A stretch of DNA of 64,000 nt from Opitutia bacterium (GTDB taxonomy: Bacteria > Verrucomicrobiota > Verrucomicrobiia > Opitutales > UBA953): the NCBI GenBank assembly GCA_003569165.1, contig BGOI01000001.1, positions 208,501 to 272,500 of the forward strand. Reading direction: 5' to 3'. Under the pieces are notes generated by a model, which saw only the letters and a list, made by a program, of their open reading frames with translations, ran no database searches and had not been told where the DNA came from. Below are positions 19,594 to 58,941 of this stretch, piece by piece (within the stretch, counting starts at the first letter, position 1; each line of letters starts with the position of its first letter). The position numbers and the translations under genes are program-made.

Positions 19594-19905
19594 GAATCTG
19601 CGGTAAGCGGTTGGCGGTTAGCGGATAGAAAAGACAAAGGGGCGCGGCGGCTATATTGTCCCCAGCCAATCATCCGGTCTCCGGTTTCCCTTTGAGTTGT
19701 GAATCTCTGCCTTGGGTAGGGGCGCCACTGCGTGGCGTCCGTTTGTAGAGGCGCGCGCGTTGAGCCGGGCAAGATCACCGGCCATTCCAAAATCCGTCCG
19801 CCCACGGACGTGATGGCAATCACGTCCCTACCCATTGCCCCTCCTCTATTCAGCCCTCCACTCAGTCCTCAACGCAGCACTCCATTCAGTGCTCCACTCA
19901 GCCCT
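19594..19905. repeat. REP-type palindromes and other intergenic repeats
   Basis: After uvrC: GCGGTTAGCGG words (about 19600-19628), a CCAATCATCCGGTCTCCGG element (about 19668-19690), a GTAGGG REP with stem GGCGCCAC/GTGGCGTCC (19716-19741), an inverted REP with stem GGACGTGAT/ATCACGTCC ending CCTACC (19806-19832), then CAGTCCTC words (19849-19907). Each element has relatives elsewhere in the window. Confidence 0.75.
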
Positions 19906-31161: not shown

Positions 31162-31232
31162 GTAGGGATGCGATGACATCGCATCCGCTGAATCGATAGG
31201 GCGAACGGAGGCGATGTCATCGCCTCCCTACC
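31162..31232. repeat. Inverted pair of GTAGGG REP elements (BIME-like)
   Basis: GTAGG then stem GATGCG-ATGACAT-CGCATC (31162-31186), and facing it stem GGAGGCGATG-T-CATCGCCTCC ending CCTACC (31207-31232). The facing pair after nuoF could fold as one cruciform and may end or stabilise the nuoBCDEF transcript. Confidence 0.75.
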
Positions 31233-32870: not shown

Positions 32871-33250
32871 GTAGGGATGCGATGACATCGCATCCGCCTG
32901 TCTCTTGGTAGGGACAGCACCACGTGCTGTCCTATCTGCATCACGTTCGCCGCAGGGCGAACGCAGGTAGGGGCACGATTCATCGTGCCCTCTTCCATCG
33001 GAGGGCGCGGCGTAGCCACGCCCCTACCCTCGGCCGCCCTGCGGCGGCCAGGCAGGGATGCGATGACATCGCATCCGCTCCTATGTCGTGACGCGGTCCC
33101 GACCCTACTCAAAGCAACACACCCGCATCCTATCCGGTTTCCGGTCTCCCTTTGGGATTCGCCACTCCCCCGTGCCCCCTTGTCACCATGCCCACGTGCC
33201 CCCTCGCGGCTCCGCCGCGCTAGGCAGGGTCGGGACCGCGTCACGACCTA
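32871..33250. repeat. Dense cluster of at least seven REP-type palindromes
   Basis: In order: GATGCG stem (32871-32895), ACAGCAC stem (32908-32932), CGTTCGCC/GGGCGAACG hairpin (32944-32963), GGGCACGA/TCGTGCCC (32967-32991), a CGTGG-type CCTACC-ending element (33003-33028), CGGCCGCC hairpin (33031-33051), GATGCG stem again (33053-33076), GTCGTGAC..GGTCCCGAC element (33086-33109) and its inverse (33224-33250). A CCGGTTTCCGGTCTCC word lies near 33130-33150. No gene found. Confidence 0.75.
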
Positions 33251-34335: not shown

Positions 34336-34603
34336 GGTAGGGGCGCGACTGCGTCGCGTCCGTTCGCAGAGAAACGTGCCCTGAGCCGGGCGGAGACAGC
34401 CTGATTCCCACGATCTGTCCGCCCACGGACGCCACGCAGTGGCGCCCCTACCCGTGACAGGTGTCTGCGGTTAGCGGTTGGGCGCGGCAGAGAGACAGCG
34501 GATGCGATGTCATCGCATCCCAACCCGATACAGAGTTCTAGGTAGGGCGGGTTCTCCGAACCCGCCGCCGAACGGACGGCTCGGAGAGCCGTCCCTACCT
34601 AAA
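34336..34603. repeat. REP palindromes before nuoG
   Basis: GTAGGG with GGCGCGAC/GTCGCGTCC stem (34336-34362), inverted GGACGCCAC/GTGGCGCCCC ending CTACC (34423-34452), GATGCG stem (34498-34521), GGCGGGTTC/GAACCCGCC (34542-34567) and facing GGACGGCTC/GAGCCGTCC ending CTACC (34571-34600). Between them is a GCGGTTAGCGG word (34465-34475). CTCTGG / CTCGGG words follow at about 34619-34650. The rest of the gap 34049-34742 shows no gene. Confidence 0.75.
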
Positions 34604-38078: not shown

Positions 38079-38098
38079 GCGGAGGTTCAAGTGATCAA

Positions 38099-38352
38099 GG
38101 TAGGGACAGCACCACGTGCTGTCCTTTTTTGTGGAAACCATTCTCGGGTGGCGGGTGGCAGCCCCGGGTGGCAGGTGGCGGGACGGGGATAGGTAGGGGC
38201 GCGACTGCGTCGCGTCCGTGGGCGAACGGAGGTCCGAATGGTCGGCGACCTGGCCCGACTCGACGCACGTGCCTCTGCGAACGGACGCCACGCAGTGGCG
38301 CCCCTACCCACTACAGATACAACGAGGGCAGCACGCGGTGCTGCCCCTACCA
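38099..38352. repeat. REP palindromes after nuoI; first acts as a likely terminator
   Basis: GTAGGGACAGCAC-CAC-GTGCTGTCC then TTTTTT (38099-38130), 21 bases after the nuoI stop. Then a GGGTGGCAGGTGGC element (about 38143-38185), GTAGGG with GGCGCGAC stem (38193-38218), inverted GGACGCCAC stem (38279-38309), and inverted GGCAGCAC/GTGCTGCC ending CTACC (38325-38352). No gene in 38079-38394. Confidence 0.75.
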
Positions 38353-38394
38353 ACATTACCTATCCCTGCCCCTACCCCAATCCCTCCGCGGCGA

Positions 38395-39474
38395 TTACTT
38401 CGCCGCGGGATAATCCGTATATCCCTTCGCGCCGGAGGCGTAGAAGGTGGCTTCGTCGGGGGTGTTGAGCGCGAGGTTCTCCCGCAGGCGACGCGGGAGA
38501 TCGGGATTGGCGAGGAACGGCACGCCATAAGCGACGGCGTCCGCCCAGCCCTCGGCGATGGCCTGCTCGGCCTGCGCGCGATCGAAGCCGCCGGCGGTGA
38601 TGAGCACGCCTTTGAAATCCTTACGCAGCTCCTTGGGACCGACGCCGTCCTTGGCGCCGTGCGCGATATCCTGGGCGGTAACGCGCGTGACGTGGGCGTA
38701 GGCGAGTTCGAGCTTGGAGAGTTCGCGGAGAAGGTAACCGAAGGTCTCGGTCGGATTGGCGTCCGACATGTCATTGAACACGCCGCCAGGCGAGAGGCGG
38801 ATGCCCACGCGATCGGAGCCCCAGATGGAGATGACGGCATTAGCGACCTCGATCGTCAGGCGGGCGCGCGCGGCGAGGGAATTGCCGTAGCCGTCGGTGC
38901 GGGTGTTGGTTCCGCTGCGGAGGAACTGGTCGAGCAGGTAGCCGTTGGCGTTGTGAATCTCGACGCCGTCGAAGCCGGCTTCCTTGGCGAGGCGGGCGCC
39001 CTTGACGTATTCGGCGACGATGCCGGGGATCTCTTCGATGTGCAGGGCACGGGGGACGACGTAGTCGGCCATCTCCTTGCCGGTCCAGAGCTGGCCCTTC
39101 GGCTTGATGGCAGACGGGGCAACGGGGAGTTCGCCGTTCGGCTGGTAGTCGGGGTGCGAAATGCGGCCGACGTGCCAGAGCTGCAGGAAGATGCGGCCGC
39201 CCTTGGCGTGCACGGCGGAGGTGACCTTCTTCCAGCCCGCGACCTGCTCGTCGGTGTAGATGCCCGGGGTATTCGGGTAGCCATGGCCGCGGGGCGAGAC
39301 CGTGGTGGCCTCGGCGATGATCAGGCCGGCGCTGGCGCGCTGGGCGTAATATTCGGCCATCAGGTCCGTCGGGACGTTGGCGCCTTCGGCGCGGCAACGG
39401 GTAAGCGGAGCCATCAGGACGCGGTTCGGCAGCGTGAGGGCACCTACTTTGAAAGGAGAAAAGAGGGAGGACAT
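38395..39474 (-). CDS. NADH:flavin oxidoreductase, Old Yellow Enzyme family
   Basis: FMN enzyme reducing activated C=C bonds or nitro compounds (NemA/xenobiotic-reductase type). 359 residues from MSSLFSPFKVGALTLPNRVLMAPLTRCRA; the ORF-track N-terminus 94 codons longer crosses repeats and is rejected. Markers: QLWHVGRISHPDYQPNG near 100-116 (His pair region HVGR), VEIHNANGYLLDQFL near 180-194 (active-site HxANGYL), and DRVGIRLSPGG. Monocistronic, convergent with nuoI. Physiological substrate unknown. Confidence 0.93.
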   Translation of the reverse strand: MSSLFSPFKVGALTLPNRVLMAPLTRCRAEGANVPTDLMAEYYAQRASAGLIIAEATTVSPRGHGYPNTPGIYTDEQVAGWKKVTSAVHAKGGRIFLQLWHVGRISHPDYQPNGELPVAPSAIKPKGQLWTGKEMADYVVPRALHIEEIPGIVAEYVKGARLAKEAGFDGVEIHNANGYLLDQFLRSGTNTRTDGYGNSLAARARLTIEVANAVISIWGSDRVGIRLSPGGVFNDMSDANPTETFGYLLRELSKLELAYAHVTRVTAQDIAHGAKDGVGPKELRKDFKGVLITAGGFDRAQAEQAIAEGWADAVAYGVPFLANPDLPRRLRENLALNTPDEATFYASGAKGYTDYPAAK

Positions 39475-40048
39475 TTGAGTGAAGAGAAGGGAGAGGGGGT
39501 AGGGATAGGGGTGGGGGTGGGAAAGGCAAGGAGGTGAAGAAGGTGGTGGCGGTTGGCGGATTGCGGTTAGCGGATAGGGAGAGGCAGAGGTTTCGAGGAC
39601 CTGAGGGCAGGAGGACTCGAGGACTCGAGAATTCAATGGAGGGCTGAGTTGATGACGGATGACAGAATACCCGAACCTGCACCTGAACCTGAAAACCCGT
39701 ACCAAGTACCTGACGGCCGAGACCTGAGACCTGAAAGTGTTTCTGACCCCAGCCAATCATCCGGTCTCCGGTTTCCCCTTGAGCGGGCAACATCCCGCCA
39801 CCTGCCACCCAGGGCTGCCACCCGCCACCTGAAATGAATTCCACCTAGGTCGTGACGCGGTCCCGACCCTACCCACGCAATGCATACCTGCCGATCGACT
39901 TCACAAAGGTTCAATTAGGTTCATCGCCCAACCGCTACCCGCTAACCGCCCACCGCTATCACCCCGAAGCCTCCGGCTTCGCCCCATTAATCTTCCCTCT
40001 CTAGCCGTAGACCCCTAAAAGTGCCTTACGCCTCCCGCGTCGTCTGTC
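39475..40048. repeat. Gene-free region with several repeat families
   Basis: From the OYE start: GGGATAGGGGTGGGGG low complexity, GCGGTTAGCGG words (39548-39575), GAGGACTCGAGG words (about 39594-39630), GAACCTGCACCTGAACC words (about 39673-39740), CCAATCATCCGGTCTCCGG element (about 39752-39780), CCGCCACCTGCCACCC element (about 39793-39835), GTCGTGAC..GGTCCCGAC element ending CTACC (39848-39875), further CGCTAACCGCC words (39930-39958) and a GAAGCC-TCC-GGCTTC hairpin near 39964. Promoter of the following pyrophosphatase gene must lie at its right end; none was clear. Confidence 0.65.
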
Positions 40049-44092: not shown

Positions 44093-44400
44093 AGGACTCG
44101 AGGACCAGAGGCCCCGAGGACAGGAGTAATTTGAGGGTGGGACAGCACCACGTGCTGTCCTTTTTTGGGGGCATCATTCTCGGGTGGCAGGTGGCAGCCC
44201 CGGGTGGCAGGTGGCGGGATGCACCGGGGTAGGGGCGCGACTGCGTCGCGTCCGTGGGCGGACGGAGGTTGGAATATCGAAAAAGTCCGCCCGGTGAGTC
44301 GCACGTTCCTATGCGAACGGCGGCCATGGCAATGGCCGCCCTACCCGAGGCAGGCTAGGACAGCACGTGGTGCTGTCCCTACCTAAATACACCTCCGGCC
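44093..44400. repeat. REP and other repeats between rnr and the glycosyltransferase gene
   Basis: GAGGACTCGAGGACCAGAGG words (44093-44125), the ACAGCAC hairpin (44137-44160), GGGTGGCAGGTGGC element (about 44174-44220), GTAGGG with GGCGCGAC stem (44228-44252), inverted GGCGGCCATGG-CAATGGCCGCC ending CTACC (44321-44345), inverted ACAGCAC stem (44355-44382), then GGCCCTCCTGTCCTC words near 44395. No gene found. Confidence 0.75.
44140..44166 (+). terminator. REP-type hairpin with T-run after rnr
   Basis: GGACAGCAC-CAC-GTGCTGTCC followed by TTTTTT, 55 bases after the rnr stop; same stem as after nuoI. Confidence 0.7.
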
Positions 44401-46084: not shown

Positions 46085-46505
46085 ATGGGTAAGGACAGCA
46101 CCACATGCTGTCCTATTTTGTTGGGTTCGCATATAGGTAGGGCCGAGCATCCCTGCTCGGCCGCGGCCGGCCAAGGATGGCCAGCCCTACCCGAGGCAGA
46201 GATACTCAACTCAAGAGGAGACCGGGAACCGGATGATTGGCTGGGGCCGGAGGTAGGGACGTGATTGCCATCACGTCCGTGGGCGGACGGAGGTTGGAAT
46301 ATCGAAACAGTCTGCCCGGCGATACGGACGTGCCGCGGCGAACGGCGGCCATGGCAATGGCCGCCCTACCCATAACAGGTAACAGCGGTTGGGCACTCAA
46401 AGCGAGACTGTAAACCCGAGTTAATGCTGCGGGAAAATGTCCCCAGCAAACCATCCGGTCTCCGGTTTCCCTTGTCTCTTACAAACCGCCAACCGCTAAC
46501 CGCCA
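46085..46505. repeat. REP and other repeats between the barrel gene and dxs
   Basis: GGACAGCAC-CAC-ATGCTGTCC then TATTTTG (46093-46120), 32 bases after the gene and terminator-like. Then GTAGGG with CCGAGCAT-CCCT-GCTCGG stem (46137-46162) facing GGATGGCCAGCCCTACC (to 46190), CCGGATGATTGGCTGGGG element (about 46228-46248), GTAGGGACGTGAT-TGCC-ATCACGTCC (46253-46278), inverted GGCGGCCATGG stem ending CTACC (46344-46372), CCATCCGGTCTCCGG element (46448-46470), and CGCTAACCGCC words (46490-46505). No gene in 46061-46519. Confidence 0.75.
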
Positions 46506-58668: not shown

Positions 58669-58941
58669 AGGTAGGGACAGCACCACGCGCTGTCCTTTTG
58701 TGTTTCCTGATTAGGTAGGGCCGAGCATCCCTGCTCGGCCGTGGCGCCAAGGATGGCCAGCCCTACCTAAGACACCAAAGGGCGCTCAATGAAACCGGAG
58801 ACTGGTTGATTGGCTGCGGCCTTGAGGGTGGGGCGCGACGGCGTCGCGTCCGTTGACCAAAGTCACTGAGAATAGCCAAGCCGGTCTACCTCGCACGACA
58901 TGAGGCGAACGGACGCGACGCCGTCGCGACCCTACCCAAAC
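58669..58941. repeat. REP palindromes between pgl and nrdA
   Basis: GTAGGGACAGCAC-CAC-GCGCTGTCC (58671-58697), GTAGGG with CCGAGCAT-CCCT-GCTCGG (58713-58738) facing GGATGGCCAGCCCTACC (to 58768), a GAAACCGGAGACTGGTTGATTGGCTG element (58790-58816), GGGGCGCGAC-GGC-GTCGCGTCC (58829-58854), and inverted GGACGCGAC-GCC-GTCGCGACC ending CTACC (58914-58938). GGCCCTCCGG words follow near 58978-59010. No gene in 58583-59017. Confidence 0.75.

What the first reader, a model, noticed from the sequence alone, without database searches (positions are those of the whole stretch)
31162..31232. GTAGGG REP elements with many different stems, in inverted pairs
At least ten distinct palindromic stems (for example GATGCG, ACAGCAC, GGCGCGAC, CCGAGCAT, GGACGTGAT, GGCGGCCATGG, GGCACGA, GTCGTGAC) all carry a 5-prime GTAGGG or a 3-prime CCTACC. 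This is the GTAG-plus-palindrome layout of REP elements moved by RAYT (TnpA-REP) transposases. The constant GTAGGG with many stems suggests several sub-families, or one enzyme tolerant of the stem. The 31162-31232 pair is the cleanest; clusters lie at 19716, 32871, 34336, 38099, 44137, 46137 and 58671.
Basis: partly seen in the sequence, partly recalled or inferred. Interest (0 to 1): 0.6.

Follow-up and report, generated by a model that had tools for sequence, protein, structure and literature searches.

The report
REP hairpins with class-specific RAYT transposases
The window, from a small freshwater Opitutales bacterium, is dotted with short DNA hairpins of at least nine families, nearly all of which also flank a gene for a RAYT transposase in this genome or in close relatives; REP/RAYT repeats are a known kind of bacterial repeat, here resolved unusually clearly.

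Summary
The window has 27 hairpins with an intact GTAG head and GG...CC stem (scan: 35 hits, 5.3 expected from randomised sequence), mostly in outward-facing inverted pairs between genes. The 31162-31231 pair is exact; its stem occurs 20 times in the draft genome (reversed control 0).

The would-refute conditions are not met: the draft holds four RAYT genes, each flanked by REPs of its own class; three of those classes are in the window. Several sub-families, each with its own enzyme, is the right option: across 56 RAYTs of the family, stem class follows RAYT clade (15 label changes, minimum 13, shuffled mean 42).

The 31162 class matches a RAYT found in two sister species. The syntenic site of that gene lies inside this window (38086-38407), but holds only REPs here, so the class is an orphan in this draft. 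RAYT genes of a class mostly keep one site across species while REPs turn over. Two hybrid elements join ends of two sister classes, so stem specificity may not be absolute.

Opitutus terrae, also a verrucomicrobium, is already reported rich in GTAG REPs. This is a known kind of repeat, cleanly resolved.

The parts
31162..31186 (+). REP class D, GTAG-GGATGCGATGACATCGCATCC (left end of a REPIN)
   Evidence: 20 genome copies; same hairpin flanks the RAYTs of G014 and G062
31207..31231 (-). REP class D variant, GTAG-GGAGGCGATGACATCGCCTCC (right end; preceded by GCGAAC as in the G014 RAYT-flanking unit)
19716..19740 (+). REP class E end of a hybrid E/F element with ~65 bp spacer
19806..19831 (-). 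REP class F end of the same hybrid element
32871..32895 (+). REP class D, single
32908..32932 (+). REP class A (GGACAGCACCACGTGCTGTCC-TA)
   Evidence: cognate RAYT at G000:C3:76288-76665
32967..32990 (+). REP class H left end (GGGCACGATTCATCGTGCCC)
   Evidence: related heterodimer flanks the G054:C129 RAYT
33003..33027 (-). REP class H right end (GGGCGTGGCTACGCCGCGCCC)
34337..34361 (+). REP class E, left end of a 115 bp element
   Evidence: cognate RAYT G055:C7 with the same ends and spacer edges
34427..34451 (-). REP class E, right end
34542..34566 (+). REP class G left end (GGCGGGTTCTCCGAACCCGCC)
   Evidence: cognate RAYTs G032:C236, G054:C235
34574..34598 (-). REP class G right end (GGACGGCTCTCCGAGCCGTCC)
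38086..38407 (.). Site orthologous to the class D RAYT locus of G014/G062; here RAYT-free, filled by A, E-E and B REPs
38100..38124 (+). REP class A followed by T6 (terminator-like), 22 bp after the stop of the 37503-38078 gene
38193..38217 (+). REP class E end of a 115 bp element
38283..38307 (-). REP class E end of the same element
38326..38350 (-). REP class B (GGGCAGCACCGCGTGCTGCCC)
   Evidence: cognate RAYT at G000:C3:71723-72091
39848..39872 (-). Imperfect GTAG hairpin, class not matched to any RAYT
44137..44161 (+). REP class A with degenerate head (GTGGG), followed by T6
44229..44253 (+). REP class E end of a hybrid E/F element
44319..44344 (-). REP class F end of the same hybrid element
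44358..44382 (-). REP class A
46137..46162 (+). REP class C left end (GGCCGAGCATCCCTGCTCGGCC)
   Evidence: cognate RAYT at G000:C1:465330-465704
46165..46190 (-). REP class C right end (GGCTGGCCATCCTTGGCCGGCC)
   Evidence: class C pairs span 54 bp in 16 of 20 sampled
46253..46278 (+). REP class F end (GGACGTGATTGCCATCACGTCC)
   Evidence: same hairpins flank the G064:C58 RAYT
46344..46369 (-). REP class F end (GGCGGCCATTGCCATGGCCGCC)
58671..58695 (+). REP class A variant followed by TTTT
58715..58740 (+). REP class C left end
58911..58935 (-). REP class I (GGTCGCGACGGCGTCGCGTCC); related hairpins flank the G045:C64 RAYT

Best explanation
These are REP/REPIN elements of at least nine classes (A-I), each made and spread by its own REP-associated tyrosine transposase (RAYT). 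Shown here: the GTAG head, the family-specific stem, loop and tail, outward-facing inverted pairs, recurrence across the genome, RAYT genes flanked by REPs of the matching class, and stem classes that are clades on the RAYT tree. Inferred from established IS200/IS605 and TnpA-REP biochemistry: the HUH/tyrosine enzyme recognises the folded REP as single-stranded DNA, cuts next to GTAG, and copies or moves the REP pair in trans. Shown: within a class the RAYT gene mostly stays at one genomic site across species while the REPs come and go at other sites. In this draft, classes A, B, C and J have their own RAYT. D, E, F, G, H, I and K do not, so their copies are probably left over from RAYTs now lost, or their RAYTs lie in the unassembled part.
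For: Four own-genome RAYTs (NF047646 bits 80.1, 77.3, 69.6, 68.2), each with GTAG REPs of its class on both sides. 54 of 56 RAYT loci have GTAG hairpins within about 250 bp on at least one side and 43 on both, against 9.7% and 0.5% for random places in the own genome and 0 of 5 for the ~300-aa Y1 relatives. Stem class on RAYT tree: 15 changes, minimum 13, shuffled mean 42, none of 200 shuffles as low. Conserved PDHxH, K, WQ, FDHR and Y..NP in the RAYT alignment. Copies D 20, A 44, reversed control 0. REP turnover at two orthologous intergenic sites across species. Same-site RAYT orthologues for most classes. Class-specific pair spacing: C 54 bp, E 114-122, F 117-123.
Against: No movement was observed directly. 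Three of four own RAYTs score below the NCBIfam cut-off of 80 bits, though HUH, tyrosine and flanks are intact. Several classes, including the one of the named pair, have no RAYT in this draft (86.6% complete). Hybrid E/F elements show that class borders are not absolute. Stem classes were assigned by me from the flanks, and 10 of 56 loci fell outside named classes.
Confidence: 0.93

Rival explanations
1. One stem-tolerant RAYT moves all the GTAGGG hairpins, and only the GTAGGG head matters.
For: The head is the same in all classes; two E/F hybrid elements in the window share one spacer, so sister enzymes or one enzyme may accept both ends.
Against: Stem class is clade-specific on the RAYT tree; four RAYTs in one genome each carry only their own class at both ends; of 41 head-to-head pairs, most join hairpins of one class.
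Confidence: 0.04
2. The hairpins are intrinsic transcription terminators or other RNA elements kept by selection, not mobile repeats.
For: Most lie just after genes or between convergent genes; four of 25 class A copies in 857 kb are followed by TTTT or more.
Against: No copy of any other class has a T run; orthologous sites are empty or filled with other classes in sister species; identical hairpins flank RAYT genes; no Rfam match.
Confidence: 0.05
3. Non-autonomous elements (MITEs) of some other transposase family.
For: Inverted ends with a spacer, especially the 115-117 bp E and F elements.
Against: The same ends and spacer edges bracket RAYT genes (G055:C7, G064:C58), and the ends are hairpins with a GTAG head rather than simple terminal repeats.
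Confidence: 0.02

Closest known systems
GTAG REP families of Opitutus terrae (Di Nocera et al. 2013, PMC3733652)
   Same: Verrucomicrobia; several GTAG families in one genome; head-to-head pairs, some with 1-2 bp spacing; the paper states that species with several GTAG families also have repeat-specific REPtrons
   Different: Stem sequences could not be compared here (the paper's figure is not held); here RAYT-stem matching is shown across about 50 RAYT loci of related genomes
Stenotrophomonas SMAG/REP classes with cognate RAYTs (Nunvar 2010, PMC2817692; 2013, PMC3686654)
   Same: GT(A/G)G head, GC-rich palindrome with 2-4 nt centre, several classes per genome, RAYT flanked by inverted REPs, REPs that outlast lost RAYTs, 'orthoswitch' between related classes
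   Different: Tens of copies for the two classes counted here; different phylum; hybrid E/F elements with a shared long spacer
REPINs of Pseudomonas fluorescens SBW25 (Bertels and Rainey 2011, PMC3116915)
   Same: Inverted REP doublets as the unit, class-specific spacing, specific RAYT per class
   Different: Many single class A and B REPs here, and RAYTs A and B are bracketed by single REPs rather than doublets

Membership tests
REP elements (GTAG superfamily) | GTAG/GTRG head directly followed by a GC-rich palindrome | tested here: met
   27 in the window; 142 GG-type hairpins in 857 kb
REP elements (GTAG superfamily) | Repeated many times across the genome | tested here: met
   D 20 and A 44 copies, reversed control 0
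REP elements (GTAG superfamily) | Extragenic location | tested here: met
   All window clusters lie between genes, most with Pfam-supported neighbours; not tested genome-wide
REPIN (inverted REP doublet) | Two REPs in inverted orientation, GTAG outward, with class-specific spacing | tested here: met
   41 HH against 4 TT; C 54 bp, E 114-122, F 117-123; many A and B copies are single
RAYT (TnpA-REP) | IS200/IS605-like Y1 transposase with HUH and catalytic tyrosine | tested here: met
   PDHxH and Y..NP conserved in 55-56 of 56 proteins; NF047646 hits, one of four own RAYTs over the curated cut-off
RAYT (TnpA-REP) | Gene flanked by inverted REPs of its own class | tested here: met
   all four own RAYTs; 43 of 56 loci on both sides, 11 on one side
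RAYT (TnpA-REP) | RAYT and REP co-evolve | tested here: met
RAYT/REP pair for the named 31162 class | Cognate RAYT present in the same genome | tested here: not met
   No class D RAYT in the 86.6% complete draft; the syntenic site holds REPs only; present in G014 and G062
RAYT (TnpA-REP) | Cleavage of single-stranded REP at GTAG and REP mobilisation | not testable with these tools
   needs biochemistry

The most novel reading that the evidence does not exclude
In this genus the RAYTs change stem specificity step by step and the intermediate stages can be seen: sister classes A/B/J differ by one compensated base pair and the loop, and classes E and F share a spacer and form hybrid elements, so a RAYT of one class can act on, or recombine with, an element carrying one foreign end while specificity shifts.
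Probability: 0.35. Interest if true: 0.5.

Novelty: new member of a known kind. Interest (0 to 1): 0.3.

Why it matters
It gives a natural series of about a dozen RAYT-hairpin pairs in one genus, with orthologous sites that are filled, empty or swapped. That is a good set for working out which stem and loop positions a RAYT reads, and how REP classes outlive their enzymes. It does not reveal a new kind of system.

Tried and rejected
The Pfam Y1_Tnp model found only one own RAYT; NF047646 found four. Terminator reading rejected for all classes but a minority of A copies. Rfam: no match. Class D RAYT loss against late gain at the 38086-38407 site could not be decided: sister species with an empty site show no RAYT remnant. 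Class F RAYT flanks of G064 match separate places of contig C14 and others in the own genome, so no syntenic site was found. The 300-aa Y1 proteins of the family are not REP-associated. The RAYT tree is rooted at the midpoint, and a few long branches are unreliable. A formal covariation count on the stems was not made, because the hairpins had been selected for pairing.

Full report
What is there. The window belongs to a freshwater Opitutales (Verrucomicrobiota) draft genome of 2.03 Mb, 37 contigs, 86.6% complete. The scan finds 35 GTAG-plus-hairpin sites against a mean of 5.3 in 30 dinucleotide-level randomisations. Twenty-seven are GTAG followed by a GG...CC hairpin of 20-22 nt; these carry the signal. 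The named pair, 31162-31186 (+) and 31207-31231 (-), is two near-identical hairpins in inverted orientation, GTAG outward, 20 bp apart, and it folds far better than shuffles.

How many kinds. By stem, loop, tail and spacing the window holds about nine classes (letters are mine): A ACAGCAC-CAC, B GCAGCAC-CGC, C GAGCATCCC with ACCATCC/GCCATCC, D GATGCGATGAC, E GCGCGAC and GCGCCAC around TGC, F ACGTGAT and CGGCCAT around TTGCC, G TCTCCGA, H GGCGTGGC with CACGATTCATCG, I CGACGGCG; 39872 remains unmatched. Tails after the stem are class-specific: TAG/TAA most often after A, TAG after B and J, GCG after C, TCC after H, GTT/GTG after E and F. In 857 kb of the genome, pairs are 41 head-to-head, 27 tandem, 4 tail-to-tail, and spacing is class-specific: C 54 bp, E 114-122 bp, F 117-123 bp.

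Recurrence. Genome-wide and with up to one mismatch, the class D hairpin occurs 20 times and class A 44 times in the own draft; the reversed pattern gives 0. D is in 34 and A in 42 of 55 genomes of the genus.

Transposases. The RAYT model NF047646 finds four genes in the draft. Flanks: C1:465330-465704 has class C REPs on both sides; C3:76288-76665 has one class A REP on each side, inverted; C3:71723-72091 the same with class B; C32:11596-11970 has an identical class J pair on each side. Across 56 RAYT loci of the family, 43 have GTAG hairpins on both sides and 11 on one, against 0.5% (both) and 9.7% (any) for random places in the own genome, and none at five ~300-aa Y1 relatives.

One class, one enzyme lineage. 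On a maximum-likelihood tree of the 56 RAYTs, classes A, B, C, D, F, H1, J, K and L each sit on one side of one branch with high support; all labels together need 15 changes, minimum 13, shuffled mean 42, none of 200 shuffles as low. Sister RAYT classes have sister stems: A, B and J share the CAGCAC inner stem and differ at the third pair (A-T, G-C, T-A) and in the loop (CAC, CGC, TGC). This speaks for several enzymes and against one tolerant enzyme.

What moves and what stays. For classes A, B, C, D, K and L the RAYT gene lies between the same neighbour genes in different species, with exceptions G049 in A and the own J gene. The REPs, in contrast, turn over. The intergenic site of the named pair lacks GTAG REPs in G014, G064 and G052 and carries other classes in G036. 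At the site 38086-38407, sister species show nothing (G029, G010, G050, G035), A plus an F pair (G044), a C pair plus an E end (G045), A plus H2 plus B (G040, G032), A plus an E pair plus B (this genome), or the class D RAYT unit (G014, G062). So the gene belonging to the named REP class sits, in two relatives, at a place that lies within this very window and is RAYT-free here. Whether it was lost here or gained there is undecided. The G062 copy reads HLR where HxH is expected.

Hybrids. Elements 19716-19831 and 44229-44344 each carry one E and one F hairpin around the same spacer that pure E and F elements have. RAYTs of E and F are sisters at about 59% identity. Either one enzyme accepts both ends, or ends are exchanged by recombination.

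Mechanism. Shown: anatomy, copy number, class matching, site turnover. Inferred from published work on TnpA-REP (cited through PMC3733652, PMC2817692, PMC3116915): the RAYT recognises the hairpin in single-stranded DNA, cuts next to GTAG, and mobilises the pair in trans. A side effect, inferred: some class A copies followed by T4-T6, one of them 22 bp behind a stop codon, probably act as terminators.

Comparison. Di Nocera et al. (PMC3733652) report Opitutus terrae, also a verrucomicrobium, as highly enriched in several GTAG families, and that species with several families also have repeat-specific REPtrons. Nunvar et al. (PMC3686654) describe REP classes that persist after RAYT loss and 'orthoswitch' between related classes. 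PMC8049555 states that RAYTs are single-copy, vertically inherited genes. All main features here fit those descriptions, so the finding is a new member of a known kind.

Noticed in passing
window 38086-38407: Orthologous site of the class D RAYT of G014 and G062; in about a dozen sister species it is empty or holds different REP class combinations, a turnover hotspot.
   Followed up: yes
window 19716-19831 and 44229-44344: Hybrid elements with one class E and one class F end around the shared spacer.
   Followed up: partly
window 38100-38124, 44137-44161, 58671-58695; L196 3735-3759; L125 2465-2490: Class A REPs followed by T4-T6, terminator-like; the T6 copy at 38100 is shared at the same site by G044, G045, G040 and G062.
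   Followed up: partly
L150 (G062:C18): The class D RAYT of G062 has HLR in place of the second histidine of HxH, a likely decaying copy.
   Followed up: no
G018, G026, G038, G039, G041, G057, G067, G076, G078: These small genomes (0.9-1.5 Mb) of the genus have no class A or D REPs; at the NuoF-downstream site two relatives (L247, L250) have intergenic gaps of only 5-7 bp.
   Followed up: no
G031 and G033 (same family): Many copies (18-32 and 8-13 hits) of a longer Y1 transposase, about 290-460 aa; perhaps a recent expansion of another IS200-like family.
   Followed up: no
L225, L226, L227 intergenic region after the NuoF gene: In relatives the NuoF gene ends with a hairpin of the plan GGACCGCA...TGCGGTCC plus T run without GTAG, similar to class A REPs; in this genome the class D pair stands there.
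   Followed up: no
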